From Tanypteryx hageni (taxonomy: Eukaryota > Arthropoda > Insecta > Odonata > Petaluridae), in the NCBI GenBank assembly GCA_028673005.1, contig CM054114.1, forward strand, positions 128,121,307-128,185,306: a stretch of DNA of 64,000 nucleotides, given 5' to 3'. Made by a program: the position numbers and the translations under genes. The stretch's first letter is position 1. The number at the start of each line of letters is the position of its first letter. The notes beneath the pieces are model-generated. The model saw only the letters and a program-made list of their open reading frames with translations. It was not told where the DNA came from and searched no databases. Positions 9,661 through 26,533 of this stretch are shown piece by piece.

Positions 9661-10389
9661 ATGACATGCCTCGTCGTTACATGCTCATCAACTTTCACCA
9701 TCGCACTTTAAAACTAAGTATTGGACGCTCACTATCGACTCAAATTAGACGTAATGTTTTACTACATAAGTTTAAACGTTAACCTATACGGCATGTTTTT
9801 GTTTCATTACCTTCTAAAAAAATATTATGATTAACAATGAGCAATTACGTTTGTGTATTAATAAATCCGAGTAAATAATGCAGGAAATGAAAGTAAATAA
9901 TTTAAAAAGTGCCATATGTTTACAATTTTAGCAAATTAATAGTTAAAGACAGCAAATGACCGAAAGTGGCTACATCCATATATAATAAATAGATTATTGG
10001 AAACGTACTCTGAGTAATAACACTGGTAAATAAATTAAGTCTAACCTGCTAGTAAAACGCAAATGTTTTTACATAATGGAATGTTGATTACAAATCATTT
10101 ACAAAAAATACAATTTATTTAGCCTGCTTAATCGGTTATAAAAAAATCTACCAAAAAATAATCACAATTGAATAATTGGAAAACCAAAGTAAAATGCACA
10201 CCGCTATTTGACCCCACGGGGCCTAAAGTAAACAAACAATTATTTATTGGACAAATGTGAATGCATCAATATCTCTAAGGATTAATCTTATTCCTTTTAG
10301 CTAAATTTTTCATCAGAAACATTTATAAATGATTAAACCTGAGGTACACATTTAACAAAAAATAGCGTTCTTTTAAGAAATTTTCGGAG
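9661..10389. other. Non-coding AT-rich stretch
   Basis: No gene, RNA gene or clear repeat is recognised. Confidence 0.4.
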
Positions 10390-11240
10390 ATAAGCAAGTT
10401 AGAGAACTAATCAGCATTAAGGAGACGAGGAACGGAAAAAAGATAGATTGATGAAGATTTTTCCGATTAGCGAGAATGTAACAGAGGTGGAAAGGAGGCT
10501 CAGATGAGAGAGGAATGAAAGTAAGAGAAAGTGAACTAGAGAAAGGTAGAATATGAGAGGGAAAGAGGTGAATGAACTTAATTAGGGTTTCTGAGGAATG
10601 AAACCTGCAAGTCAGATTGGCAATGCAAATGAGAGAGAATTTTAAATTAAAAGAAAAGTGAGGGTTAGAGGAGAATATAGGGGAGGAATGGGAGTGGGTG
10701 GAGAGGAGAGGGCAGAAGAGAGGAGAGAGGAGATGGGAGAGGAGAGGGAGGAGGAGACGCGGGAAGGAGGAGGAGACGGGAGAGGGAGGAGGAGACGTGA
10801 TAGAAAAGAGACGGGGGAGAGAAGAGGAGAGGGGGAAATGGAGAGAGGGGAAGGGAGAGGGGTAAGGACGAGGGGGGAAGGACGAGGGGGAAAGGACGAG
10901 GGGGGAACGACGAGGGGGGGAACGACGAGGGGGGAACGACGAGGGGGGAATGACGAGGGGGGAACGACGAGGGGGGAATGGACAGGGAGGATGGGTGAGG
11001 GGAGAAGGATGAGGGAGGAAGGATGAGGGGGGAAGGAGAGGAGGAAGGATGAGGGGGATGGGCAGGGGAGAGGGGAAGGGGAGGGAGAGGGGGAGATGGG
11101 GAGGGGAGGGAGAGGGGAGATGGGGAGGGGGGAGATGGGGAGGGGAGGGAGAGGGGGTGGGGAGGGGTGAAGGGGCGAGAGGAGGGGAGATAAGGAAGTG
11201 GAGAGGGGAAGTGGAGAGGGGGAGGGGAAACAGAATGTCA
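10390..11240 (+). repeat. Polypurine tract with G-rich minisatellite
   Basis: The + strand is almost entirely G and A. At 10,867-10,980 about eight units of a 14-15 bp repeat (GACGAGGGGGGAAC and close variants) stand in tandem. From 11,050 to 11,230 a looser GGGGAGATGGGGAGG-type repeat follows. Long open frames run through both strands here (for example about 300 codons on the - strand), but they encode only Ser/Pro/Leu or Arg/Gly/Glu repeats, the expected product of a two-letter sequence. Confidence 0.85.
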
Positions 11241-14099
11241 AAGAGGATAAAATAGATAGCGTTAGAATAATTCAAATACATCGAATTAGGAACTATTCTG
11301 TTATACTAAAACATGCTAGTTAATAGCTAAATGCAAGCAGAGCTGATTTAGAAACGTTTTATTGAGAACTTCCTCAAACAAAATTTTTTAGAAACACGGC
11401 ATGAAGGGAACAAATTCTGCAAATATCGCTAAAGTTTGCGGAATGAAATACGTTATTCTGGGCAGAAATCTTATGAGCTTAACCGCCTAATCTTTGAGGA
11501 GCGATTAATTCAACCGACGTCAAAATCTTATTCGCGTAGCGCAAGTTTTCCCTTAAACATAATTTTACCTTGAAACCTTACTGCCAATATAACTAACAAT
11601 TTATGTTGGAAAAAAGTTTATTGGACTGAATAACATGATTTTCTCGCAAAATATGATTCTTTTTGCGTATTATTTCCGTTTGAGCTAGAAGTGTGTTTGA
11701 GAACGCACCCAGCGTCTGATAATTTTCTTGGAGTTGGTTTAAACTCAAAGGGAAACCTTATTTCGGCAGCTTTCGTCTGATCCTTGAAGTTTCGGAGATT
11801 AAAAGCTCAAGTTGATGACTTAGAAGGTTGGATACGCCTGCTAGTCAAATTCAAAACTTTTCGTTACTGACATGCGCGTGGACCTGAACACGGGTGTAGT
11901 TGGTGGCAAAGAATAAAGAAGCAACAAAATCTTTGATACTTTTCAAAAGTTAAATATAACAATTTATTTCATACACATTCGCATTCAGGTTAGTCTAATA
12001 AACCCGCAGCGGCAATAATAATTCCTTGCTGAATGTTCGGAAAAGGCAATTAATTATCTGTAATTTCAAAGTGTCTTCATTTAGGAAATGTTTAAGCAAT
12101 CCCGCAATGAAAATACTAATACACAGCTGTAATAGCTCGGAATCTTAAACATTTTATTGCTGATTCTTATTCTGTGGCATAAAAAATTATTTTTAACAGA
12201 AAAATCTGATGTAGCCACCGCATGACTTTCTCCATACCTATAATATTTCTAAAATTTCCAAATAGGTTAAACGATAATACATATTTTAAGGAACTGCGAG
12301 AAAAATTAAGACTACAAAGAACAGAAATAAACTCAAACCATAGCCTTCTGATATTGGATATAGCCAAGAAGCTCCAACATTTAAGAAAATGAATAGCAGC
12401 GTTACTAAGACGTAACCAAGCGTCAAGTGTTTACAATAGTCGTCGGTATGAAGTGGCAGCTAAAAAATTAGTTTTAAAAATATCTCTTAAGTAATGAATG
12501 ATAAGGAAAAATGTTTCAAACAAAGAATGTAGAAAGTTAAATTTCCGTCAAATTTTACTCCAGTACTCTTTTACATTCATCAAATAAAGCAAATATTAAA
12601 AAACGAATGTGACAAGTGTAAACACCCACTTCCGGTTGTCTAATTTTCACCAAAAACTAATCAATTCTTGTTCCTTTAACAAACATGTCAAATATAAATT
12701 TTCGCATTGACCCGATTAATACTTTTTGAGTTAGAGCATCCACAAAATTCCTACCTCATACACACACATCATCGATAAAATGATTAAAACTTGTTCAATC
12801 GACCTCAAAACGTGTATTTCTGTTGAAATCTCTAAATCGATTTTTTTTCATGAAAACAATACTTTCCCCTATACGACGTATGGGTAGTGTCGATGCATTA
12901 CAAACAATGTCTGGCTAAAGAATTTCTAAATCTTGATTCCCACAAATGATTGTGATCCTATTTGCATTTATCAATAATTATACATCTCACGAATTAGAAT
13001 TATTTTCAAATTAATAATAAATATTTCAACATACGATATTTTCAATATGAAATAGTCCATTTAAAAGGTTCAGGTGATTATTCATAATCGTCATAACCCG
13101 TATTGTAAATTTATAAATTAAATTCATAAACCTTAAAGGTTTGCATCAATATGGGGAAAGTTTTATATATATTTTCCAAACTTATACAAACTACCTAGTG
13201 GTTAAATACTACACCTATTTTTAAAAAGAAATGAGCCAGAAAAAAAACAAATCGAATAGCATCGAAAAAAAGCTAAAATTTTCCGAGTTTTTATTTCATA
13301 CCATGCTAGTTCCTCGAACGATTTCATCCTTTTGTAAAAAAACGCAGTAAAATTTTACATTTTAGACAAAATAAAATCATTTGACCCCACCAAACTGTTC
13401 TCTTTCTTCAAATAAAAGACTTCGTAAAGCCAAATCACGTAGATTCCATTGCAAAGGGGTAATTAAAACATTCGGTAGGAACCTACGGTTGCAAAATATA
13501 AACAAAAACACACAGCTAATACCGAATTCGAGGCACGACTCGGGGTAAACTTAATCGTTCATGCTGCGGCAACGATAAAAAACACAAACTTCTTCCATCA
13601 CGATCACAAATGATGCGAAATTAGATTAAATAAAATATACGCGACAGTGCTCGCGGTGAGGGAAGCAGAGGAGAAAGAGGTAAAAACGATGGGAGACCGG
13701 CGCAAATAGGAAGTGATTAAAATTCAAATGAGATTTACCAAGATACATTTTCCGTTTAAATTCCCTTCTCGTTTCAGAAATAAATAACGAGAGATGAAAA
13801 AACCGCCTAAGAAATAGGAAAAATGACTGCGCGCGAGAGAGGAAAGACCAGAGGGAGATTTAAAAAAGTATTTTTGAGAAAATAAGAGCAACAAAATATG
13901 TACAAAGGAGAATATATATATGAAAGTAAAAACAGAAGAGCAAAAATACAGAAGAGAGCAGCAAAGGGATGGCATTTGCTGAGGAGCTAAGTAAGAAAAA
14001 TAATTATACAAAGAGAATAAATTTAAAACGAGAAGATTAGCAATGGTAAATTTTTTTGCCGAGAGAAATTATTTATTCCTTTTACTTTGCTATTAATCC
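11241..14099. other. Non-coding AT-rich stretch
   Basis: No gene is recognised over about 2.9 kb. GA-rich sequence begins to appear after about 13,660. Confidence 0.45.
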
Positions 14100-15370
14100 A
14101 TAAAATTTTAAGGCAGACAAAGAGAGAGTTAAAGCGAGGTGAAATGAGACGGAATAGAGGGAGGGAAAGAAGATAAGGGTGGGAGAAAGCATTGAGAATG
14201 AGGGAGACTTTGGAAGGGAGAATGTGGAGAGGTCTATTGGAGATAGAGATGAAGAAAAGAGCGAGAGAAGCAGGTTGAGCGGAAGGATGAAAGGATAGTT
14301 ATGCAGGAGGTTGGCTGGGAGGAAAGAGAGAGAGGGGTTAAAACGACGAGAAAGGAGAGAAGGGAAAAAGAAACAAGAAGGAAGATGGGAAGAAGCGAAA
14401 TGGGAAGATGCGAGAGGGGAGCGAATATGGAGAGGTGATGGAGAGAGAAAGAGAGGATAGAGAGAGGGAAGAGACAGAAGATGAATGGGGGAGTAGAGAG
14501 AGGAGATGGAGGGGGTAGGGTGGATAGAGGAAGGGGGAGGGTGGATAGAGAGAGGGAAAAGAGAGAGGGAGGGACGAGAGAGATGGACGATAGGAAAGAG
14601 AGAGGAGGAAGGAAAGAGAGGAGGGAGGAACGAGTAAGGTGAGATATAGGAACGAGAGGGGGAGTAGAAGAGGGAGGGATGAGTGAGAGAAGAGATTGGA
14701 AAGAGAGATGAGGGAGGAGTGAGAGGAGGGAGGAGAGGAGAGGAGGGGGCGGAGAGAGAGGGAGGAGAGAAAGCAGGGAGGAGAGAGAGAGGAGGGAGGA
14801 AAGAGAAGAGAGACAGAAGGGAGGAGAGGAGGGAGGAGAGAGAGGAGGGGGGAGAGAGAGGAGGGAGGAGAGAGAGGAGGGAGAAGAGAGGAGAGATGGT
14901 AAGGAGGGAGAAAGAGAGGGGAGTAAGAGAGGAGGGAGGGAGGAAAGATAGTAAGGAGGGAGAAAGAGAGGGGAGGGAAAGAGAAGTGGGGAAAGAGAGA
15001 TAGAAGGAATACGAGAAAGAGAGGAGAAATTTGAGAAAAATAAGTAAAAAGAGAAGGGAAAGATTAGTGAGAGAGAGAGGAAATGCGAAAGTTGGGGAAA
15101 ATTAAAGAAAGAGGAAGATAGTTGATAAGATTGGCAGAGAGAGAAAAGTTGAAGGGATAAAGGATAGAGAGAAAATAGTGATGGGAAAAAGAGAAGAGAG
15201 ACAGAAAGGCAAGTTTGGAAGGAAAATAGAAAGGGGAAAAAAGCAGAAAGGAGAGAGGCGTTGGGAAAGAAGAGAGGATAGATTTGACTGATATAAGTGA
15301 AGAGAGAAATGAAAGAGAGAAAGAGAGGAGGTAGAGAGAGAGGGATAGATCAAAAAGGAGAAAGGAATGA
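14100..15370 (+). repeat. Long polypurine (GA-rich) tract
   Basis: About 1.27 kb in which the + strand is overwhelmingly purine, composed of GAGAGAGG, GGAGGGAGGA and GGGAAAGAGAGA variants without a fixed period. All open frames here are compositional. The tract ends immediately before the family A LINE fragment. Confidence 0.85.
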
Positions 15371-15394: not shown

Positions 15395-16199
15395 TAGTGG
15401 TCCTAGCGACCATCGTCAGCTTCAGGATGATCTGGATGCGTTATCTGTTTAGTGCAAGGAATGGCAGCTAGAAATCAATCAGAAAAAGAGTAACGTTCTA
15501 AACTTTTGGAAATCTAGAGGCCCATCGTCCGTGTTTACCTACTCGATAGATGGTGAGAGCATTCCTGTTTCGGAATCCGTTAAATACCTCGGGGTAACCT
15601 TGAATCGTGACCTGTCTTGGGACACCCACATAAGACGAGTGATAGGTGCGGCAAATAAGAAGTTGGCTTTTGTGCGTAGAATGGTCAGGAAAAGCACGGA
15701 AAAGGTGAGAGAATCCTGTTATTTATCGTTGGTTAGACCTCAAATGGAATACGCAGCAGCGGTTTGGGATCCATATCAGAGGGGACTCATAAAAGATTTA
15801 GAAAAAATACAGCGCGAGCAGCTAGATTCGTGAAAAAGAATTACGATAAAAAACAGAGCGTTACGTTACTCATTGAAGAGTTGAGTTGGCCATCGTTGAA
15901 AGATCGTAGATTACAGGCGAGACTTAAACTTCTAGATAAATATAGGTCGGAGATATTCCTAAATGAAATGAAGGATATTATTCGACAACCAACGTATATC
16001 GGACGGAGGGATAATGAGGACAAGATTCGCAAAATAGATAGTAGGACGGAGAGGTATAAGGAGTCATTTTTCCCTAGGACAATACGTGACCACAATAGAT
16101 AAGTGAATAATAAGTAGTAAGGAACTTGGTGCGCGGCACCCCCTGCCATCCACCGTCAAGGTGACTTGCAGGGTAATATGTAGATGTAGATGTACAGTC
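15395..16199 (+). mobile_element. Family A LINE, 3' fragment (copy A1)
   Basis: A 5'-truncated non-LTR retrotransposon. The frame opening near 15,400 encodes the region just after the reverse transcriptase motif C ('WCKEW' equivalent, 'VKYLGVTLNRDLSW', 'CYLSLVRPQMEYAAAVWDPY'). It shifts frame near 15,813 through loss of one base and continues from about 15,820 to a stop at 16,100-16,102 after 'FFPRTIRDHNR'. The protein matches the C-terminal third of the intact frame at 17,124-19,202. A short 3' UTR (GGTGCGCGGCACCCCCTGCC...) ends in TAGATG repeats near 16,180-16,199. An in-frame stop near 15,450 also breaks it. Confidence 0.85.
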
Positions 16200-16287: not shown

Positions 16288-17034
16288 ATGCCGCCCAAGG
16301 CTTTAAAGAAGGACGTTGAGTCCGATAGCACGGAGTTCCGTGCTATGATGGAAACGGTTATGAAGACTATGTCTTCATTTCAAGATGAACTAAGCCAAAT
16401 CCATAAGGAAGATACTTCTAAGAGAAAAGAATCCCTTTCATCCTTAGAGGAAAGATTCAACAGCTTCCGAACAAAAGTGATGGAAGACTTCCGCCGTCTC
16501 TCTGAGCGCCTTAGTGATCTAGAGAAGAAATGCGTGGAATTGGATGAGAGACAAGACGCCTTAGAGTAGTATTCCCGACGCAACTGTCTTCTCATTCATG
16601 GTGTAACGGAGAAGGAGAATGAAGATTGCTTACTTCTAGTGACTAAATTCTTCAAGGACGAAGTAAAAGAAGAGATCGACATGCAGCGTCTTTCCAGAGC
16701 TCACAGAATCGGTGTTCCCAGAAGCTCCAATCCTAACCCTAGAGCTATTATCGTCAGGTTTTTATCCTATCAGGAAAGAGACAAGGTGTGGGGAAACAAG
16801 AGACGCCTCAAAGGTACCAATTTTCTTGTCACCGAGTCGCTTACCTCTACGCGTAAAAAGTTATTGCAAGAGGTAAAAATGTTGACAGGACCACGTGGGG
16901 TCTGGACGCAAGACGGGAAAATAGTTGTCCTGCATGACGGCAGCAGACGGTTTATCTCCACCATGAGAGATGTAGAGGCATTGAAGCGGGCCTGGCCCTC
17001 TCAGAAATCAACTCCGGGGGACGGACGTCGCTAA
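16288..17034 (+). pseudogene. LINE ORF1 (L1-ORF1p-like), single nonsense codon
   Basis: The frame starts MPPKALKKDVES and runs to TAA at 17,032-17,034, interrupted by one TAG at 16,567-16,569. The N-terminal part (about residues 10-93) is a charged heptad-like coiled coil. After the stop comes YSRRNCLLIHGV, then RAHRIG, PRAIIVRF and a C-terminal segment with VWTQDGKIVV. This order (coiled coil, RRM-like core, C-terminal domain) is that of L1-type ORF1 RNA-binding proteins, the family annotated as Transposase_22. Such proteins coat the element RNA. The stop falls where related proteins usually have Q before YSRRN, so a single C-to-T change would explain it. Which LINE family it belongs to is not settled, because no ORF2 follows directly. 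Confidence 0.75.
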
Positions 17035-17043
17035 GTAACATCT
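17035..17043. repeat. Target-site duplication, left copy (GTAACATCT)
   Basis: The same nine bases recur at 19,255-19,263, on the other side of the - strand LINE copy. The ACATCT end overlaps in sequence with the element tail, so the exact length is uncertain. Confidence 0.6.
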
Positions 17044-19254
17044 ACATCTACATCTACATCTACAAGTTACCCTGCAATTCACCAAGTTGGTGGGTGGCAG
17101 GGGGTGCAATGCACCAATCCTACCTAAAGATTGTCTAACGCAATTCGAAATTTCCTATTGTGATCTCTTATTGTCCTCGGAAAGAACGAGCCTAGATAAC
17201 GTTCCGTCCTACAATCGATCTCACGTATTTTATCGTCTCGATCATTTCTACCTATATACGTCGGTGCCACAATTATTCCCACTACCTCCTCTTTTAGACA
17301 TTCTGACCTATATTTCTCTAGAAGTTTCAACCTTGAGTGCAATCTACGCTCCTCCAGTGATACCCAGTTCAAATCGCTCAATAAAGAGGTGACGCTTTCC
17401 TTATGTTCGTACTTTTGTTTTACAAATCTGGCTGCTCTGCGCTGTACTCTTTCTAGTTGAATTATGTGTCCCTTCTCGTACGGATCCCATATGCTCGCTG
17501 CGTATTCCACTTGTGGTCTTACCAGTGATAAGTAGCATGTTTCGCGTACTTTCTCTGTAGTGTTCCGTACTATTCTACCTATGAATGCCAGTTTCTTGTT
17601 GGCCGCGCCTATAACTCGACGAATGTGCATGTCCCACGAAAGATCTCGACAAATGGTTACTCCTAAATATTTTACATACTCAGCTTGTCGAATACTCATT
17701 TCATCTATTTTATATTCGAAACCTAAATCTTTGTTCTTACTTTTCCAGAACGTGACTGCGGCACATTTAGTATAATTAATTTCGATTTGCCATTCTTTGC
17801 ACCACGCTGAAATGGCTCTTAAGTCTTCACACAGAGACTGATGGTCCTCCTGATTTTTTATTTCATTATATAGAACGGTGTCATCGGCGAAAAGCCTAAT
17901 TTTACTACGAACAACCGAGCACATATCATTTACATAGATTAAGAAGAGCAGAGGGCCTAATACACTTCCCTGAGGAACACCCGAAGCAACTTTAACGGGG
18001 GACGAGTATTTCCCATCGATGACAACTATCTGTTCCCTATTCGAGAGGAAGTCTCTCACCCAACCGACAACTTTCGAATTGATACCACATTGTCCTAACT
18101 TCGCAATTAATTTCCTATGAGATACTTTATCGAACGCCTTCCTGAAATCAATGAATATGGCATTGACCTGAGTATTTTTCTCTCCGCATCGCAACAAATC
18201 GTCCACGAACAGGCCGAGCTGCGTTACGCATGATCTACCTCTCCGGAATCCGTGTTGGCATCCGCTAAGCAATGAATGGCTATCTAAATAGCGCATTACA
18301 GAGCTAAAGACTATGTGCTCAAGTATCTTGCACGATAATGAAGTTAAGGATATCGGCCTATAATTTTCGGGGTTCTCTCTGTCGCCACTCTTATGGATGG
18401 GCGTAACATGTGCCACCTTCCAATCTTTAGGAACTACTCCTTCTCTAATGGATTTCTCGAATATAATTTTCAAATACGGCGCGATTTCAGCAGCTAATTC
18501 TTTCATTACACGCGCGGGAATTTCCTCCGGTCCAGGAGATTTATTTGGCTTAATTGAATGAAGTTGGAGCGCGATGCCATTTTCCGAAAATACCAAATCT
18601 TCCATCGAATCGCCCTGACGCATAGGAATAGGGGTTTCACATTCATCGTCATCACGAGTAAAAGCTTTCTGAAAGTGATGATTTAATAGGTTTGCTTTAT
18701 CCATACTATCGTGAACTACGTTTCCCGTTTCCGACCGCAGTGACGCAATAGTGGGGCCCCTACCTTGAACTTCCCTGACGTAAGACCAAAATGCTTTTGG
18801 GTTCTCTTTCAAGTTTTCCTGTAAAACCTTCTTTTTATAATTGTTAAACGCATTACGCATTGCTACTCTGGCTATGGAGCGCGCCTCCTTGTATTGATGC
18901 CTTATTATTGCATTCTGTTCGACCGTAGCTGTTGAGGATGTGTTATTTACGCGAGAGTGGAGTTTTCTTTGACGTCGGAGAGCGCTTCTTACTTCCTGAT
19001 TGTACCATCTAGGTTCTGCACTATCACGCTTCTGTTTGCTCGGAATAAATTTATCTGTACACTCTCGCATCATATCTCTGAACATGCACCAGGATTCCTC
19101 CACGTCTGCACTATCGGTTAAATTGCAGAAATTAGTATATTTATTTCGCAGAAAAGACCTAAATCTTGTGAAATCGGCTTTGGCGAATAACCTTACGAGC
19201 AAGACTTCGGATTTTCTTAGAAACTGACAAAGACCACTACGGCATAATCATTAG
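17044..19254 (-). mobile_element. Family A LINE, 5'-truncated copy (A2)
   Basis: About 2.2 kb on the - strand. The 3' end is at 17,044 (TACATC repeats, then the conserved block CCCTGCAATTCACC...GGGTGGCAGGGGGTGC). The element lacks the endonuclease and is truncated just before the region that joins endonuclease to reverse transcriptase. It is flanked by GTAACATCT on both sides. The reverse transcriptase frame is uninterrupted, suggesting a recent insertion. Confidence 0.85.
17124..19202 (-). CDS. Reverse transcriptase of family A LINE (ORF2 C-terminal part)
   Basis: An uninterrupted frame of about 692 codons. It stays open upstream to a TGA in the element's first bases, so the given start (TTG) is only nominal. 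Reverse transcriptase landmarks are all present: NYRPISL (about residue 280), QHGFRRGRSC (316-325), motif A IDFRKAFD (351-358, catalytic Asp kept), SGVPQGSVLGPLLF (407-420) and motif C FADD (438-441). After these come the thumb and the typical C-terminal block with CYLSLVRPQVEYA, ending FFPRTIRDHNRKFRIALDNL. The protein copies element RNA into DNA at the target site. It falls in the CR1/Jockey group by motif style, clade unresolved. It lacks the endonuclease and so is not a complete ORF2, but the catalytic core looks intact. Confidence 0.85.
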   Translation of the reverse strand: MLVRLFAKADFTRFRSFLRNKYTNFCNLTDSADVEESWCMFRDMMRECTDKFIPSKQKRDSAEPRWYNQEVRSALRRQRKLHSRVNNTSSTATVEQNAIIRHQYKEARSIARVAMRNAFNNYKKKVLQENLKENPKAFWSYVREVQGRGPTIASLRSETGNVVHDSMDKANLLNHHFQKAFTRDDDECETPIPMRQGDSMEDLVFSENGIALQLHSIKPNKSPGPEEIPARVMKELAAEIAPYLKIIFEKSIREGVVPKDWKVAHVTPIHKSGDRENPENYRPISLTSLSCKILEHIVFSSVMRYLDSHSLLSGCQHGFRRGRSCVTQLGLFVDDLLRCGEKNTQVNAIFIDFRKAFDKVSHRKLIAKLGQCGINSKVVGWVRDFLSNREQIVVIDGKYSSPVKVASGVPQGSVLGPLLFLIYVNDMCSVVRSKIRLFADDTVLYNEIKNQEDHQSLCEDLRAISAWCKEWQIEINYTKCAAVTFWKSKNKDLGFEYKIDEMSIRQAEYVKYLGVTICRDLSWDMHIRRVIGAANKKLAFIGRIVRNTTEKVRETCYLSLVRPQVEYAASIWDPYEKGHIIQLERVQRRAARFVKQKYEHKESVTSLLSDLNWVSLEERRLHSRLKLLEKYRSECLKEEVVGIIVAPTYIGRNDRDDKIREIDCRTERYLGSFFPRTIRDHNRKFRIALDNL

Positions 19255-19263
19255 GTAACATCT
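19255..19263. repeat. Target-site duplication, right copy (GTAACATCT)
   Basis: Partner of 17,035-17,043. It marks the 5' end of the - strand LINE copy. Confidence 0.6.
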
Positions 19264-20111
19264 GTCGTGCGTACTGCATTGTGCTACTTGAGTTCTTGTT
19301 TTCCACTTACTCCGTTTTTGTCATCGCCTGGCATCTCCGTTCCTGCATTTGCTGATTCTCGGCTGTTTTCCGTGTTCCTGAGAGAAGAAAGAAGCTCCCT
19401 GTGCGTTTCCGTTCCCCCTTCTTCAGCAGCGACTTTCTTTTCTTTCTTTCTTTCCCTCCCTTACGTGGCGTCCCAAGTGAAAATTAGTGCCTGTGTATAT
19501 TAGTGTCTGTGTATATTAGTGTCTGTGTATATTAGTGCCTGTGTTTATTAGTGCCTGTGTATATTAGTGCCTGTATTTATCTGTCTCCCCTACATCCCTA
19601 GTTCTCCCAAATTAATTCATTCATAGCCCCTCATTTCTCTAGTGTCAGTTCTCCCCACAGTGTTTTCATTTTCGGTTCTCTCTAGTGTAATTGCTCCCAA
19701 AATCTAATCCAAAGAGCCCCTATTTCCCAGTGCTAGTGCTCCACGTAGTGTTTTATTTCAATCATCTCACCAGTGAAAATAAGTGTCTGTAGTTATCTCT
19801 GTCTCCCTTCCACCCTTAGTGCTCCCAAAGCCGTTTCCCAATAGCTCTTACTCCACAGTGTTAGTGCTCCACTAAGTGTTTTATTCCACTCACTCGATAA
19901 GTTCCTTTAGCTCTCTAGGGCAGTTCTCATATTCCTACAGTGCAGTGCTCGCGCCTTCCTGTGCTCCTCTGTTTTCCTTTGCAATTAGTTTATAACTTAT
20001 CCTTTACTTGACCTGTGTGTATTTTCCTGCTTTTTCATTATACATTGCAATATTGTATTGTGTATTGTATTCCTAACTTTGCGCATCCTACTCTATAAAA
20101 TATCCTCACCT
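19264..20111 (+). promoter_or_regulatory. Probable LINE family B 5' region with nested tandem repeats
   Basis: This stretch leads into the proline-rich ORF1. It contains six tandem units of 16 bp (TAGTGCCTGTGTATAT and variants) at 19,485-19,580. Three degenerate longer units follow (about 110 bp each, from about 19,571 to 19,910), recognisable by 'gctcccaaa', 'cccagtgctagtgctccac' and 'agtgttttatt'. Repeated 5' monomers act as promoters in some LINEs. That this is the family B promoter is inference from position. No open frame of interest is present. Confidence 0.5.
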
Positions 20112-20648
20112 ATGTTTAATTCTTCCCCTGGAATCTTGCCCACTAATAGCACTTCTTTCCCGTTCGTACCTCCCATCAGTAGACCCTCCCAGCAGGACGT
20201 TATGACGCCCATTAGCTCTTCTGACTTTCCACCCCCCGCTGACCACCCTTTCCCCCGCTTTTCCCATTGCACTCAAAATAACAACACATGCCCTCTCTCG
20301 CGCATCACCTCTTCCCCTGTCCCACCATATAACCTTAATACGCATGGTCCTCACACTCTCAACCCAGAGGCAGCAGAATTCGTACCCCCCTCCATTCCAC
20401 TCCCGTCCCCACCCCCCTCACTACCTGCTATACATCCAGGCACAATCCGTACCTACTTTAACCCACATGCTCCTGATTTCATTCCTTCCCTAACTCAACC
20501 GCGTCCTTCCTTAGACCCAAATGCCTCTGAATTCTACCCATACGTATCTCCTGGTTCCCCATTTTCTAATCTTCTCCCTATCCCTATCCCTTCTGGTCTA
20601 AATTTCGCCCGAATAAAGACGATTATCTATCTATCTATCTATCACTAA
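20112..20648 (+). CDS. Proline-rich LINE ORF1-like protein with three PAM2-like motifs
   Basis: The frame is open from 20,058. The ATG at 20,112 (MFNSSPGIL) is preferred because upstream residues are hydrophobic and unlike the rest. The protein is low-complexity, rich in Pro and Ser, with no zinc knuckle, RRM or coiled coil. It carries three short motifs fitting the PAM2 pattern (L/F-N/D-P-x-A-x-E/D-F-x-P): LNPEAAEFVP (20,358-20,387), FNPHAPDFIP (20,457-20,486) and LDPNASEFYP (20,511-20,540). PAM2 peptides bind the MLLE domain of cytoplasmic poly(A)-binding protein. The final residues are encoded by the LINE 3' tail (20,594 on), so the native C-terminus may be missing. Its place between a repetitive leader and an ORF2 makes a LINE ORF1 role likely. 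RNA-particle assembly through poly(A)-binding protein is inference. Confidence 0.65.
   Translation: MFNSSPGILPTNSTSFPFVPPISRPSQQDVMTPISSSDFPPPADHPFPRFSHCTQNNNTCPLSRITSSPVPPYNLNTHGPHTLNPEAAEFVPPSIPLPSPPPSLPAIHPGTIRTYFNPHAPDFIPSLTQPRPSLDPNASEFYPYVSPGSPFSNLLPIPIPSGLNFARIKTIIYLSIYH
20594..20643 (+). repeat. LINE family B 3' tail embedded after ORF1
   Basis: TGGTCTAAATTTCGCCCGAA, an AATAAA and CTAT repeats, identical in order to the true 3' end of family B at 24,711-24,755. Its presence directly after ORF1 means either that one copy ends here and a second begins, or that the element was rearranged. Confidence 0.8.
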
Positions 20649-21295
20649 TAAAAGCTTATCCTCATATTCCAATTCAAAGGCCATTCTATCTGAACAGTTT
20701 AAGCTCTTTCCACGCTCCCTCCAGATCTTATATTTAAATGCTCAAAGCTTAACAGCACATATCGAAGAACTCCGTGGCATCCTACCTAACAATAAAGTAC
20801 ACATCATCGCTATTGCTGAGACCTGGTTGAAACCATCTATGTCTTCCTCTACTGTTAACATTGACGGTTTTAAACTTTGCCGCAACGATCGCGTTGGCAA
20901 AGGCGGCAGCGGTGTCGGAATATATGTAAGAAACGATATTTCAACTAAATTTATTGAAAGTAGCGAATGTAATTACAGCAAAAGACCCGAATTTTTCATT
21001 CCTGAATTGAAAATCTATTCACAGAAAATACTTTTCGGTATTGTCTACCGTCCACCCAAAATTGGCCATCTATCCGATATTGATTAAGTCATCTCTAATC
21101 ACATTAACGATTAAAATCATTTAATAATTACTGGCGATTTTAATGCCAATATACTCGCACCAAACCCTGATTCGGCATATTTATATAACTCCTTCAACTC
21201 TCTAGGCCTTAGTATTCTACCGCTAAATGCTACTCACCATACTCCTACTTCCTCTACCCTAATTGATTTAGCCGTTACCGCCAATCCTGACAAGG
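20644..21295 (+). pseudogene. LINE family B endonuclease domain (broken)
   Basis: An apurinic-type endonuclease of a CR1/Jockey-group ORF2. The frame runs through LQILYLNAQSLTAHIEELRG (20,719 on), IIAIAETWL (about 20,800), then GVGIYVRND and FGIVYRPP. It is stopped by TAA at 21,085-21,087 and again near 21,113. The following GDFNAN block (about 21,133-21,150) and the IDLAVT block (about 21,260) are in recognisable order. The domain is then cut by a family A insertion at about 21,296. Its role would have been to nick the target DNA for reverse transcription. Nonsense changes and the insertion make it inactive. Confidence 0.8.
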
Positions 21296-21660
21296 TTCTA
21301 CATCTACATCTACATCTACATATTACCCTGCAAGTCACCTTGACGGTGGATGGCAGGGGGTGCCGCGCACCAAGTTCCTAACTAATTATTATTCACTGTT
21401 ATCTATTGTGGTCACGTATTGTCCTAGGGAAAAAGGACTCCTTATACCTCTCCGTCCTACTATCTATTTCGCGAATCTTGTCGTCATTATCCCTCCGTCC
21501 GATATACGTTGGTTGTCGAATAATATCCTTCATTTCATTTACGAATATCTCCGACCTATATTTATCTAGAAGTTTAAGTCTCGCCTGTAATCTACGATCT
21601 TTCAACGATGGCCAACTCAACTCATCAATGAGTAACGTAACGCTCTGTTTTTTATCGCGC
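21296..21660 (-). mobile_element. Family A LINE, short 3' fragment (copy A3)
   Basis: The 3' tail (TACATC repeats) is at 21,296-21,322, followed by the conserved 3' UTR (ACCCTGCAAGTCACC..., GGCAGGGGGTGCCGCGCACC) and, on the - strand, the C-terminal coding block ending FFPRTIRDHNR. It is closest to copy A1 (shared KKQSVTLLI, LSWPSLKDRRLQARL). It is inserted in the family B endonuclease. I could not resolve a target duplication. Confidence 0.85.
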
Positions 21661-21967
21661 ATGGCCAACTCTCTGCTCCTGGAATCTCCGCACATGACAT
21701 AATATACATTGCATATTCAATAAGGTGCCCAACTCACAAGCAGAAATATATCACCTATAGGGACTTCAAAAACATTAACAATGAAAAGTTAATTGCTGAC
21801 GCGTCTGCCATGCCTTGGTATTCTATTGAGTATATGGACGGCATTAACGAAGGTTGAGGCTTTCAACAATTTTGCACAGTCATTAATAAACACTCACGCT
21901 CCACTAAAGACTAAAGGGAGTCTCTAAGCCCCATGCACCATGGCTCACAACCGACATCAAACTGATA
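21661..21967 (+). pseudogene. LINE family B, end of endonuclease and linker (broken)
   Basis: Resumes family B after the insertion: GQLSAPGISAHDIIYIAYSI near 21,665-21,725, then KYITYRDFKNIN. A stop and frameshift occur near 21,850-21,860, and another one-base shift near 21,918, before PHAPWLTTDIKLI, which joins in frame to the reverse transcriptase. Confidence 0.75.
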
Positions 21968-23890
21968 ATGAAGAGACGTGATAATGCCTTCCGCATTTTC
22001 AAAAATACAAAAACACAGATCTCATTCAACCAATTTAAAAAACTAAGAAATAAAACTAAGCAACTTATCAGAAACTCTAAAACTCGGTACATTCATTCAC
22101 TGACCCGTCCAAATTCTTCACAATCTGCTCTATGGAGTAACTTAAAATTATTTGGTATTGGAAAATCTAAGGATACACAACTTCCTCCTCATATTTGCCT
22201 TGATACACTTAACACTCTATTCACCACTCCCCCAACTCCTGATGACAACGAAATGAAACAGAATCACATACACCACCTACTCCAACACACTCCTCCCACC
22301 ACAGCATCACCACCACTCCAATTTTCTCCTGTAACTCAGCTGGAAGTACTGAATTGTTTACGTAAAATCAAGTCCAGAGCACAAGGTGCTGACGAAATTC
22401 CAATAGTTTTCCTTCATAAGATTATTCATCTAGTTCTACCCATCATCACTCATACATTCAATTGGTCGCTTATGCAAAACAAATTCCCATCGCAATGGAA
22501 ACTCGCCATAGTCCGTCCCATACCTAAGAAAAGTCTTACTTCTGACATAACCGACTTTCGGCCCATCAGTTTACTTCCTGTATTATCAAAGGCATTTGAA
22601 AAGGTTTTACATGAACAAATCACATATTTTCTAATTAGTAATAATATCCTCGATTCTCTACAATCAGGATTCCGAAAATCACACAGCACTACCACAGCAC
22701 TCCTCAAAATCACTGACGATATCAGATTAGCAATGGACAAAAGAGACGTCACTATCATGACTCTTCTTGAATTTAGTAAAGCTTTTGACTCTGTAGATGT
22801 AAACATACTTCTAACCAAACTGCGCCTCATGAACTTCTCCTCAGATTCCCTAAACTTCATTAGTTCTTACCTGAATGATCGCCATCAAAAGGTCGTAACT
22901 GACAATCATTCCTCAAGATGGATTAAAGTGACACGTGGCGTACCACAAGGTTCCACCCTCGGGCCACTTCTCTTCTCTCTGTACATTAATGATATATCTT
23001 CTCAGCTTGCTCACTGTAAATACCACCTTTATGCTGATCATCTCCAAATCTATATGCACTCTCGCTCTATTGATCTCCCTCTTATCATTGATAAAATGAA
23101 CCATGACCTCACTTCTTTATCCAAATGGAGCAATGTAAATTTCCTCAAAATTAATCCTTTAAAAAGTCAGTCTATTATTATTGGGTATCCCAAACTTCTC
23201 TCGTCACTAAACTTCTCAGAACTTCCCCCAATTCTGCTCAATAACTCTGTCATTTGTTTCCAAAAAACTGCAACCAATCTCGGGTTAGTATTCAATGACA
23301 CATTGACCTGGACTAATCATATAACTAAAATATGTAATACTGTTAACAGTTCACTTCACTCACTTAAAAGAATTAAAAGCATTACCCATTTCTCCCTTCG
23401 CAAGCGACTTATCACCGCTCTTGTCCTTCCTCACCTCGATTACTGCGATACGGTCTATCAAGATCTATCTAACGAGCTGTCTCTAAAATTGCAGCGTGCC
23501 CAAAATTCCTGCGTAAGATTCATCTGTGATCTCCAAAAGAGAGACCATGTCACTCAACCTCTATATACGTTAGGCTGGCTTCGCACTGAAGCTCGTAGAC
23601 GTCTTCACCTCCTCTTGTTATTTTACCGAATTATAACTCTTCAAAACCCGCAGTATCTGAACTCCAAATTTTTCCAAATGAACTCTGTACACAACGCCAA
23701 CACTAGGGGCACCAATCTCTTCCAGATCCCACATCACAGGACGGAAATTTATAATAAATTCTTCCATGTTACAGCTTGTAGACTTTGGAACGCCCTACCT
23801 ACTGACCTCCAAAACGCAACATCTCTCCACATATTCAAACATAAATACTTTAAATTGCTGTTCTTTGCCCAAAATTCAGGTCAGCTTTAA
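21968..23890 (+). CDS. Reverse transcriptase of family B LINE, catalytic residues altered
   Basis: A 640-codon frame, open slightly upstream to about 21,920. Reverse transcriptase landmarks: DFRPISLLPVLSKAFEKVL (about 196-214), QSGFRKSHSTTTALL (232-246), GVPQGSTLGPLLFSLYINDI (324-343) and a C-terminal block with LITALVLPHLDYCD. It belongs to the CR1/Jockey group. Motif A reads LLEFSKAFD, with Glu (residue 268, codon 22,769-22,771) where catalytic Asp is expected. Motif C reads YADH (355-358, His codon 23,039-23,041) instead of YADD. With two of the three catalytic carboxylates changed, the enzyme is very likely dead although the frame is intact. Its endonuclease half is also broken. Confidence 0.85.
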   Translation: MKRRDNAFRIFKNTKTQISFNQFKKLRNKTKQLIRNSKTRYIHSLTRPNSSQSALWSNLKLFGIGKSKDTQLPPHICLDTLNTLFTTPPTPDDNEMKQNHIHHLLQHTPPTTASPPLQFSPVTQLEVLNCLRKIKSRAQGADEIPIVFLHKIIHLVLPIITHTFNWSLMQNKFPSQWKLAIVRPIPKKSLTSDITDFRPISLLPVLSKAFEKVLHEQITYFLISNNILDSLQSGFRKSHSTTTALLKITDDIRLAMDKRDVTIMTLLEFSKAFDSVDVNILLTKLRLMNFSSDSLNFISSYLNDRHQKVVTDNHSSRWIKVTRGVPQGSTLGPLLFSLYINDISSQLAHCKYHLYADHLQIYMHSRSIDLPLIIDKMNHDLTSLSKWSNVNFLKINPLKSQSIIIGYPKLLSSLNFSELPPILLNNSVICFQKTATNLGLVFNDTLTWTNHITKICNTVNSSLHSLKRIKSITHFSLRKRLITALVLPHLDYCDTVYQDLSNELSLKLQRAQNSCVRFICDLQKRDHVTQPLYTLGWLRTEARRRLHLLLLFYRIITLQNPQYLNSKFFQMNSVHNANTRGTNLFQIPHHRTEIYNKFFHVTACRLWNALPTDLQNATSLHIFKHKYFKLLFFAQNSGQL

Positions 23891-24755
23891 CATTTTCTTC
23901 TTACCTATTGCAAGACGGCTTCCTTCACTCTTCCTTACTTAATGAACATTAATTAATTTCTTCGCAGGTTATCGAGTTCTCAAAATGTACGCCTCCTTCG
24001 ACTGTTACCTTTTCATTGTCTAGTGTCTACTAAGTTATAGTGTTTATACTAATTCTCATTGTTTTATATCAATCTGTATTGTTTCATATTATTTTATACT
24101 GATTTATATCATTTTGTATTGTTTTATACTATTTTATACTGATTTATATCAGTTTGTATTGTTTAATACTATTTCGTATTATTTTATTTTATTATGTATT
24201 GTTTTATATCATATGTGTAATTTTATATCATTTCCTTCTTTCTTATGTTATGCATGATCCAACAACAATCTCCATATTCATTGTATATATTTCAAGTATA
24301 TTTCATCTTATTCTGCCAAATTATTGTATTATATTTCTTGGTTTGCATTACGTTAATATCTATATGACGGTATACAACGATGCTGTATATACGAACACTC
24401 CTCACTCCTTTCTATTTAATGTTGTATTACTATATTATAATATGTACACTATCCAGGGTTTTCGCAGGTTTTTCACACACCCCTTCTCAGTGGGTGTTTT
24501 CCTGCGTGGGTTTTACTAGGGAGGACATGCCTGTTTTACTTAGGTTTTCCCCACAATCTCTAATCTGTCTTCAATTTTATATATATATATTTTTTTTACT
24601 CTGTATGATTTAGGTATATACTGTTTATGTTATGCGTAATGTAATATCTTACTTTACCATTTTTTATATTTATTATATTGACGAAGGTTTAAATGTAAGA
24701 ATGGACCATATGGTCTAAATTTCGCCCGAATAAAGACGATTATCTATCTATCTAT
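23891..24755 (+). mobile_element. LINE family B 3' UTR and tail
   Basis: Contains a 40-bp tandem repeat (24,061-24,200, units of the type GATTTATATCATTTTGTATT...), a two-helix hairpin at 24,463-24,506, and the conserved terminus TGGTCTAAATTTCGCCCGAA with AATAAA and CTAT repeats (24,711-24,755). Short open frames here are compositional. Confidence 0.75.
24463..24506 (+). other. Hairpin in LINE 3' UTR
   Basis: The outer helix CGCAGG (24,463-24,468) pairs with CCTGCG (24,501-24,506). The inner helix ACACCC (24,477-24,482) pairs with GGGTGT (24,492-24,497). 3' UTR hairpins serve as reverse transcriptase recognition sites in some LINEs, which is suggested here but not shown. Confidence 0.5.
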
Positions 24756-26533
24756 TTATTCCTTCCAAAAAGGCAGAGCAAATTAAGCCGGCGCTATTGC
24801 TCCCGCGATCCTAATTAAGAAGGCGATGTTTAATTATGAATACGGAAGAATAAAATTTGGTCAAATTATTCTGATTAGCTTCGTGGCAACCAAGACTTGC
24901 TTCGGATATACTATAATTTTTCACCTAAATAATAAATCGCGTAGAACTCGAGCAAAACTGCGACAGAATTAGTTACTTATTCCATCCGAGAAAATGTCTT
25001 CTGAATTGAATTAATTAACGTGAATACGCAATGAGTACTCTTACTCAAAAATTAATAATTTGGATTCTATATCAATACACATTTCTTGTAGTATTATTAA
25101 TGTAATAAAAACTTTTATATTTTAAATGGAATTGTGATAATGATTCACTTACTATGCCTATATACCTTTTTTGTCTTTTCCATCACTTAACCTGTTGATC
25201 AGACATTATAAGGAGATTTAATACTTCACTTAGGTTGTTACGGTTTATGCTGACAAATGCAATCGAAAAATGTTAGGTCAAAAAATAAATGTATTTTTTA
25301 AGTAAACCAAAATTGAACTAAATTAATAAAGAGAAGAAAGCTTACTTTAAATTAATCAATATTTCTGGTTATTGAATATTAAGAAATCATAAACAATATG
25401 AAAGAGTGAATTCTATTGGAAATGTAAATTTAACTTAACTTGACAGAAATGTATTCACAGTGTCTTGAGTTATCCCAGATCGAATGTGCATAAAATTCGT
25501 TCGATACTTGAACTCAAAAACAAGGTTATAAATGACCCGGATAATTTTATAGCCAGTGCTACTACTGCATTTTATGTCGCGTACGTTGCATTGTAGGAAA
25601 GATGACGATTTTATGACCTAGATATTTTTATATCATCTCGTAGTCGGAAGGGAGGAGAAAATGCGATGAGAAAATTTTTATCGAGTAAATAGGTTACCCA
25701 TACAGGTTTATTAATTCCAAATACGCGCAAGATTTCAGAGGCAAATATCTTGTCACGTAAATACGGAAGCGTAAAGAAACAAATGCCACCTCAATCTAAG
25801 GGTTCCGCTGCGCGATGATCAAGCCGATAACATTTTTAAACGAGAATCACGACCCAGATAAACTGTAGCGGGTAAGAGCGGGAAGAGATAAAAAGAAAAA
25901 TTGGCCGACAGGTATAAAAGGATACGAAAGATCAAGCGAGAAAACTAGAGAGAGAGAAATACGAGGAATAGGCAGAGATAAGGATAGAAATAGAGCATAA
26001 AAAGGCGTTCGGAAAGAGGCAATAGCCGCGAACTCAATTCCGTAAAGAGAGAGAGAGAGGGAGGGATGGGAAAATTAGCAACGGCTGAGGTAACAAAAGG
26101 GATCCCCTTGAAATTTACGGACCCTTCCCCATTTCGACTCGGCGGGTTACAGTCGATAAGGAATAAAAAACACGGAATAATACGGATCGGACGAAAGGAA
26201 GGACGTAAAGGAGAGTATTCGTTCTTTTTTATCTCATTCTCCACCTAGGGTCGGTTTCCAAAGAGCGAGTGTTAAGGTTATCGTCAAAGAGACGCGGTGA
26301 AAGAGAACAGTGTGAAGGAGGTGGGACATACTCCAAAGAAATGTATGTTCCTGGAGATAATAATGTTAGAGAGGGTGGTATATGGAGTGGGTTGTGTTCC
26401 ATATGCAACAAAGCGTGTCGTTGAGTATATGTGTGCTACGAGTAGCTTCGTGTGTGGAGCTATTCGTTTCTGACGCACATTATTGTAACACCGGAGGTGC
26501 TACAAGGAAAAACAATGAAAGAATTTATATATT
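24756..26533. other. Non-coding stretch, no gene seen
   Basis: AT-rich DNA, with GA-rich patches near 25,930-26,070. No domain-bearing frame is present. Confidence 0.4.

What the first reader, a model, noticed from the sequence alone, without database searches (positions are those of the whole stretch)
20358..20540. Three PAM2-like motifs in a LINE-associated ORF1
Seen: within about 60 residues, a proline-rich ORF1 contains LNPEAAEFVP, FNPHAPDFIP and LDPNASEFYP. Known: PAM2 peptides (L-N-x-x-A-x-E-F-x-P, with the Leu/Phe and Phe anchors critical) bind the MLLE domain of cytoplasmic poly(A)-binding protein, as in Paip2, eRF3 and ataxin-2. Inference: this retrotransposon uses tandem PAM2 peptides to recruit poly(A)-binding protein to its RNA. 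Its own 3' end is a CTAT microsatellite rather than poly(A), so this could replace a poly(A) tail or hijack translation or granule localisation. I do not know of a described LINE ORF1 with this arrangement.
Basis: partly seen in the sequence, partly recalled or inferred. Interest (0 to 1): 0.86.

Follow-up and report, generated by a model that had tools for sequence, protein, structure and literature searches.

The report
Reverse transcriptase with PABP-binding peptides
A jumping gene (LINE) in this genome carries two or three copies of a short peptide, PAM2, at the front of its copying enzyme; PAM2 is predicted to bind the host's poly(A)-tail-binding protein, which would likely help the enzyme stay on its own RNA.

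Summary
They are not in ORF1. They lie in the N-terminal arm of ORF2, the endonuclease-reverse transcriptase (EN-RT). The window copy is dead: a 61-bp insertion, mostly a piece of the family's own 3' end, splits ORF2 and made the short frame look like ORF1. The real ORF1 (predicted L1-type fold) is at 16288-17034. Of 20 other copies read in the same genome, none has that insertion and 5 carry one intact 1123-aa frame: 3xPAM2-EN-RT. Two further LINE families here, 54-56% identical, carry 3 and 2 PAM2 motifs in the same place, in diverged linkers and often with different codons. The three families group with full support together with two partial proteins of unknown N-terminus; 0 of 63 other relatives with a visible ORF2 N-terminus have the strict motif. 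The host has a PABPC MLLE exon matching human PABPC1. AATAAA precedes the microsatellite tail. Most likely mechanism (untested): nascent ORF2p is tethered to PABPC on its own poly(A) tail, a different solution to the PABPC contact recently proposed for human L1 ORF2p. The paper searches run listed no precedent.

The parts
16288..17034 (+). true ORF1 of the element (L1-type coiled coil + RRM + C-terminal domain, predicted), with one in-frame stop at 16567-16569 in this copy
   Evidence: continuity with ORF1 of other copies; predicted fold of the family-3 ORF1 matches human LINE-1 ORF1p
17040..19187 (.). later insertion between ORF1 and ORF2, holding most of a minus-strand LINE of another family (its open frame is 17124-19247, so the boundary is approximate)
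   Evidence: absent from the L051 copy; RVT_1 in the minus-strand frame
19188..20111 (+). ORF1-ORF2 spacer with a 16-bp tandem repeat (19483-19574)
20112..20582 (+). N-terminal arm of ORF2 with the three PAM2 motifs
20358..20387 (+). PAM2-1 LNPEAAEFVP
20457..20486 (+). PAM2-2 FNPHAPDFIP
20511..20540 (+). PAM2-3 LDPNASEFYP
20583..20643 (+). 61-bp insertion relative to other copies (edges uncertain by a few bases); 20594-20642 is a copy of the family's own 3' end; it shifts the frame and creates the false end of 'ORF1'
   Evidence: absent from L010 and from 20 of 20 copies
20644..21087 (+). start of ORF2 endonuclease (APE type), stop at 21085-21087 in this copy
21300..21651 (.). insertion of an (ACATCT)n-associated repeat inside the endonuclease
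21908..23890 (+). ORF2 reverse transcriptase and C-terminus
   Evidence: RVT_1 E=1.1e-34
24711..24759 (+). element 3' end: block with AATAAA followed by (ATCT)n

Best explanation
The three PAM2 motifs form the N-terminal arm of ORF2, the endonuclease-reverse transcriptase of a two-ORF LINE, and likely tether the newly made enzyme to poly(A)-binding protein on the predicted poly(A) tail of its own mRNA. Shown here: motif identity, the ORF2 location, intact 3xPAM2-EN-RT frames, recurrence in three families, a host PABPC MLLE exon, and an AATAAA before the tail repeats. Inferred: PAM2 leaves the ribosome first, binds the MLLE domain of PABPC on the same mRNA and so raises the chance that the enzyme copies its own RNA (cis-preference) and sits near its 3' end. 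Two or three motifs would raise avidity or bridge several PABPC molecules. The L1-type ORF1 would still coat the RNA.
For: PAM2 Pfam hits above cut-off in the window frame and in families 1 and 3. Single 1123-aa frame in 5 of 20 copies. Family 2: 21 of 132 listed matches lie in uninterrupted 1154-codon frames. Three families, 54-56% identical over aligned ORF2, have 3, 3 and 2 strict motifs at the ORF2 N-terminus, against 0 of 200,000 shuffles each. Since the motifs were taken by a pattern that asks for L/F, N/D, P, A and F, their presence in all eight is by construction; but at these five positions of seven matched motif pairs 17 codons are identical, 14 synonymous and 4 nonsynonymous, so the DNA has changed while the residues stayed. 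Among 31 family-1 copies, 41 distinct codon variants: 40 in 134 linker codons (30 nonsynonymous, 10 synonymous), 1 in 24 motif codons, 0 in the 15 core ones; simple binomial 0.0097. A C tract just after PAM2-1 has a multiple-of-three length in 19 of 31 copies, which points to translation through it. PABPC MLLE exon in the host. AATAAA before the tail. PABPC1 is described as required for efficient human L1 retrotransposition by promoting RNP formation, and L1 ORF2p is proposed to contact PABPC1 for cis-preference (PMC7617806, passages read).
Against: No binding, expression or 3'-end data. Family 2 scores just under the Pfam cut-off (19.3 vs 20 bits), and its motifs 2 and 3 lack the final proline. 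The cross-species protein search for the PAM2 arm found nothing at E<=10 (28 candidates), so no genome other than this one is shown to have it. In the tree the PAM2 label needs 2 changes, because two partial proteins with unseen N-termini fall in the same group. The within-family depletion is modest and copies share ancestry. In the automatic alignment of the three arms, motif identity exceeds the rest (10/16 vs 51/133, 10/16 vs 22/79, 12/16 vs 28/80), but few motif columns could be paired. Inserted copies show no poly(A), so a poly(A) tail is inferred from AATAAA only.
Confidence: 0.6

Rival explanations
1. The motifs bind PABPC but act in translation or mRNA fate rather than in cis-preference: they would boost translation of the LINE mRNA, block deadenylation, or send the RNP to stress-granule-like bodies.
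For: Host PAM2 proteins act this way: eRF3 in termination and PAN3 and Tob in deadenylation use PAM2-MLLE contacts (PMC2854688, passages read). Multiple motifs suit competition with host PAM2 proteins (inference).
Against: Fusion to EN-RT, rather than to ORF1, fits a role in aiming the enzyme at RNA better than a bulk effect (inference).
Confidence: 0.25
2. The motifs target the MLLE domain of UBR5/hyd, the other MLLE protein found in this genome, to change ubiquitin-dependent turnover of the LINE protein.
For: A UBR5-type MLLE is present.
Against: No obvious gain for the element; PABPC is far more abundant in general (background knowledge).
Confidence: 0.07
3. The motifs are chance or relics in a proline-rich disordered arm without function.
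For: Pro-rich arm; no strict motif in 63 of 63 relatives with a visible N-terminus.
Against: 0 of 200,000 shuffles per family; 2-3 motifs in each of three families while the arms diverge; motif codons poor in variants.
Confidence: 0.05
4. One reading: PAM2 motifs sit in a stand-alone ORF1.
For: The window copy reads as a separate 178-aa frame.
Against: That frame ends inside a 61-bp insertion that is mostly a 3'-end fragment; 20 of 20 other copies lack it and 5 have one uninterrupted frame; the real ORF1 is upstream.
Confidence: 0.02

Closest known systems
Human LINE-1 ORF2p 'PIE' contact with PABPC1 (PMC7617806; passages read)
   Same: EN-RT protein of a LINE with an L1-type ORF1 is proposed to bind PABPC directly, favouring its own poly(A) RNA
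   Different: PIE is a segment of the linker domain (residues 272-297; after the endonuclease, recalled) predicted to bind RRM1; here it is tandem PAM2 before the endonuclease, expected to bind the C-terminal MLLE domain
Host PAM2 proteins (eRF3, Paip2, ataxin-2, PAN3, Tob; named in PMC2854688)
   Same: Same motif type; eRF3 has two motifs
   Different: These are host regulators; here the motif is in a mobile element's polymerase, as 2-3 separate, non-overlapping motifs
Related APE-type LINEs in insects and metagenomes (for example P0077, Megalurothrips usitatus)
   Same: EN-RT layout; the 120 listed relatives are 35-52% identical to the window RT
   Different: In the 63 with a visible ORF2 N-terminus it is mostly 15-75 aa (one 232) and none has the strict PAM2 motif

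Membership tests
LINE (APE-type, two-ORF non-LTR retrotransposon) | APE endonuclease + reverse transcriptase in one ORF2 | tested here: met
   Exo_endo_phos 1.1e-9 and RVT_1 7.1e-38 in L050 ORF2; 4.3e-7 and 4.1e-35 in family 3
LINE (APE-type, two-ORF non-LTR retrotransposon) | L1-type ORF1 (coiled coil, RRM, CTD) | tested here: met
   AF2 model of the family-3 ORF1, pLDDT 82.5; top 7 PDB fold hits are human LINE-1 ORF1p, best E 1.1e-7; profile search ranks LINE-1 ORF1p first, E 0.0041; Pfam gave no ORF1 family above its cut-off. Family-2 ORF1 was not looked for
LINE (APE-type, two-ORF non-LTR retrotransposon) | 5'-truncated copies, shared 3' end with simple-repeat tail | tested here: met
   copies start at varied points; 1818 exact 3'-end matches in the genome
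Named LINE clade (CR1, L2, Jockey and others) | RT phylogeny with named reference elements | not tested
   no named reference elements were at hand; the tree uses relatives
PAM2-motif proteins | Pfam PF07145 above gathering score | tested here: met
   window 39.7, family 1 29.8, family 3 23.0 bits vs 20; family 2 (L067) 19.3, just below
PAM2-motif proteins | Leu (or Phe), Ala and Phe anchors | tested here: met
   present in 3, 3 and 2 motifs of the three families; the pattern used asks for them
PAM2-motif proteins | binding to MLLE | not testable with these tools
   host PABPC MLLE exon present; no complex prediction or assay available

The most novel reading that the evidence does not exclude
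A LINE clade captured PAM2 peptides at the front of its reverse transcriptase as a built-in co-translational device for cis-preference: as the N-terminus emerges, it grips PABPC on the very mRNA being translated. It arose independently of the L1 ORF2p-RRM1 contact, so direct PABPC capture by ORF2p would be a general requirement of LINEs that has been met by different interfaces.
Probability: 0.4. Interest if true: 0.88.

Novelty: new variant of a known kind. Interest (0 to 1): 0.77.

Why it matters
How a LINE enzyme picks its own RNA is a long-standing question. In human L1 a direct ORF2p-PABPC1 contact has only recently been proposed. Here a separate LINE lineage appears to have reached the same partner by a short linear motif with well-known structure, affinity and point mutants. 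That makes the role of PABPC in cis-preference directly testable by single-residue changes in peptides and fragments.

Tried and rejected
Separate ORF1 reading: rejected. An intermediate reading, that the family has a single ORF and no ORF1, was held after and dropped when the upstream ORF1 appeared. Family 2 seemed to lack an AUG before the motifs: L067 carries ATT there, but 10 of 12 further places have ATG (L079-L088). The protein search with the 178-aa window frame (113 candidates, none at E<=0.001) could only reach proteins of about 98-311 aa by the tool's length rule; the one with the family-3 arm (28 candidates, none at E<=10) gave no relatives in other species. Viral contigs (1 partial locus), prokaryotic contigs (7 loci, 23-38% identical) and plasmids (none) gave nothing used. 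Genome-wide PF07145 at E<=0.001 gave one match, in a 70-aa open frame; at E<=10 all 150 scored of 835 candidates passed the cut-off. Sixteen of those 150 rows lie in open frames of 979-1117 aa; two rows in longer frames (1187 and 1415 aa) were left out of the 16, and the 1187 one reads as an apparent host gene (L093). Five places of the sixteen rows were read (L069, L070, L071, L091, L094) and are family 3; so is L092, from a row with an 875-aa frame. The rest of the 150 rows were not read.

Full report
Observation. The three motifs are in one + strand frame from ATG 20112, at 20358-20387, 20457-20486 and 20511-20540. Pfam calls PAM2 with E=2.6e-10. Shuffling the N-terminal residues of three related proteins never reached the observed number of strict motifs in 200,000 tries each (for family 2 the shuffled stretch was the stop-to-stop frame of L067, which includes residues before the usual ATG).

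What the frame is. With flanks joined, the PAM2 frame reads straight into the endonuclease. A second copy, L010, lacks the stretch; the alignment puts the insertion at 61 bp, which also shifts the frame by one. The own-genome search with the PAM2 region gave 41 matches (40 of 234 candidates scored, one with an extra piece); apart from the window itself they are 97-98% identical and leave the query where the insertion starts. I fetched 20 of these places at 6.5 kb each. All 20 have the ATG and 0 of 20 have the insertion; all show the same uninterrupted junction. Five (L050, L051, L062, L063, L065) carry one uninterrupted 1123-aa frame; in the other 15 the frame from that ATG stops after 116-615 aa. 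The five differ pairwise by 7-23 nucleotides over the frame, so the family is young. Pfam finds PAM2, APE endonuclease and RVT_1 in that frame (L050).

The real ORF1. Many copies share sequence far upstream of the PAM2 ATG. There a frame of about 248 aa begins MPPKALKKDVESD and ends about 0.95 kb before ORF2. The window holds the same ORF1 at 16288-17034 with one stop, cut off from ORF2 by the insertion at about 17040-19187. Family 3 has an ORF1 that is 51-55% identical. Its predicted structure (pLDDT 82.5 for the best of five models, 65.5-73.4 for the others) finds human LINE-1 ORF1p as the top seven PDB matches, and a profile search ranks LINE-1 ORF1p first (E=0.0041). The window element is therefore a two-ORF LINE with an L1-type ORF1, and PAM2 is on ORF2. 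The element's outer 5' end was not determined.

Other families. Upstream of two 3' ends that belong to a more diverged family I fetched L067 and L068. L067 has an ORF2 54% identical to family 1, with LNPKASEF, LNPHAPEF and LNPEASEF. A protein search with its N-terminus listed 132 matches (15,375 candidates, 132 scored); 21 lie in uninterrupted 1154-codon frames. Of 12 further family-2 places read, nine (L079-L087) have the ATG and three motifs in one frame as far as read (L081 ends inside motif 3); L088 has the ATG but shifts frame; L089 and L090 are frame-broken, with one motif altered in each. Weaker matches led to family 3 (L069-L071, L075), with LNPNAPAF and LNPNAPEF in a 98-aa arm before the endonuclease. 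Identities over aligned ORF2 are 55.6% (families 1-3, 1011 aa), 53.6% (1-2, 896 aa) and 54.1% (2-3, 824 aa).

Relatives. In a 54-row tree (3 families and 51 of the 120 listed relatives) the three families and two partial metagenome proteins, P0002 and P0012, form a group with SH-aLRT 100. Those two lack the N-terminal part, so their PAM2 state is unknown; as labelled, PAM2 needs 2 changes (25 of 500 shuffles as low). Of the 120 relatives listed (4088 scored E<=0.001), 63 show an ORF2 N-terminus by my criterion; 0 have the strict motif and 4 have a relaxed match, P0044 LRPTAPSF being the closest. Their start sites are gene-model predictions, so longer arms could be missed.

Constraint. The eight motifs were taken by a pattern that demands L/F, N/D, P, A and F, so those residues are present by construction; the evidence is that 2-3 such motifs recur at the same place in three diverged families, and that their codons differ: at the five positions of seven matched motif pairs 17 codons are the same, 14 synonymous, 4 nonsynonymous (L/F or N/D). 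In the automatic alignment the motif columns that could be paired are 10/16, 10/16 and 12/16 identical, the rest 51/133, 22/79 and 28/80. Among 31 family-1 copies (window, L010, L018-L046) there are 41 distinct codon variants: 40 in linkers (30 nonsynonymous, 10 synonymous, 134 codons) and 1 in the 24 motif codons, none in the 15 core ones; a simple binomial gives 0.0097, ignoring shared ancestry. The C tract after PAM2-1 varies from 6 to 12 and is a multiple of three in 19 of 31 copies; sequencing error cannot be excluded for some of the rest.

Partner and RNA end. The genome search found two MLLE places. One is UBR5. The other is a PABPC exon of 35 residues that matches human PABPC1 MLLE chains (E 6.2e-12); that several of those entries hold PAM2 peptides is recalled. 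AATAAA lies 7 nt before the tail repeats in 19 of 20 fetched family-1 copies (not seen in the stretch of L059), in family 2 (L011, L014, both chosen by an exact pattern that contains it) and, independently, in family 3 (L078).

Mechanism. In PMC7617806 (passages) PABPC1 is described as required for efficient L1 retrotransposition by promoting RNP formation, and an ORF2p segment is predicted to bind PABPC1 RRM1, with substitutions that disrupt activity and co-localisation; the authors suggest that it would set cis-preference during translation. In PMC2854688 (passages) mutating the PAM2 leucine in Paip2 costs three orders of magnitude in affinity, and the paired motifs of eRF3 bind better than one. 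By analogy the ORF2 PAM2 arm would catch PABPC on the same mRNA as it leaves the ribosome. This step is inferred.

Literature. Searches joining PAM2 with retrotransposon, non-LTR retrotransposon, MLLE, PABP or transposition, and one joining PABP with non-LTR retrotransposon, ORF1 and single ORF (63), showed, in the rows listed (20 of 1156, 0 of 0, 20 of 56, 23 of 24, 15 of 86; 12 of 49), no title or abstract start that describes PAM2 in a LINE protein. Only listings were seen, apart from passages of the two papers named. The library lacks most subscription papers.

Limits. The clade name within LINEs was not tested. Only this one genome shows the trait so far.

Noticed in passing
L018-L046; window 20385-20390: C tract right after PAM2-1 varies from C6 to C12 between copies; lengths off a multiple of three truncate ORF2 after the first motif. 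Replication slippage, sequencing error or a real switch.
   Followed up: partly
L068:1-900, L072:1-900: Family-2 copies whose ORF2 frame runs upstream into long tandem-repeat or pyrimidine-rich open frames in place of the PAM2 arm, giving chimeric N-termini.
   Followed up: no
G000:C9:37.16-37.27 Mb and C1:74.19-74.38 Mb: PAM2 LINE copies recur at regular spacing (about 43 kb and 62.4 kb), suggesting large tandem segmental duplications carrying them.
   Followed up: no
L010:1480-1560; window 20583-20643: LINE insertions next to or inside other copies' 3' microsatellite blocks: a family-1 copy directly after another copy's tail, and a 3'-end fragment inside ORF2.
   Followed up: partly
L093 (G000:C2:119997960-119998420): Apparent host gene (1187-codon frame) with a PAM2 motif, LNPDAAEFVP, nearly identical to the LINE's LNPEAAEFVP.
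   Followed up: no
window 15844-16194 and 21305-21657: Two 97% identical copies of an (ACATCT)n-associated repeat in opposite orientation, one inside the PAM2 LINE's endonuclease.
   Followed up: no
window 10373-11305 and 14082-15349: Purine/pyrimidine-biased repeats that give large low-complexity open frames in several phases, probably not genes.
   Followed up: no
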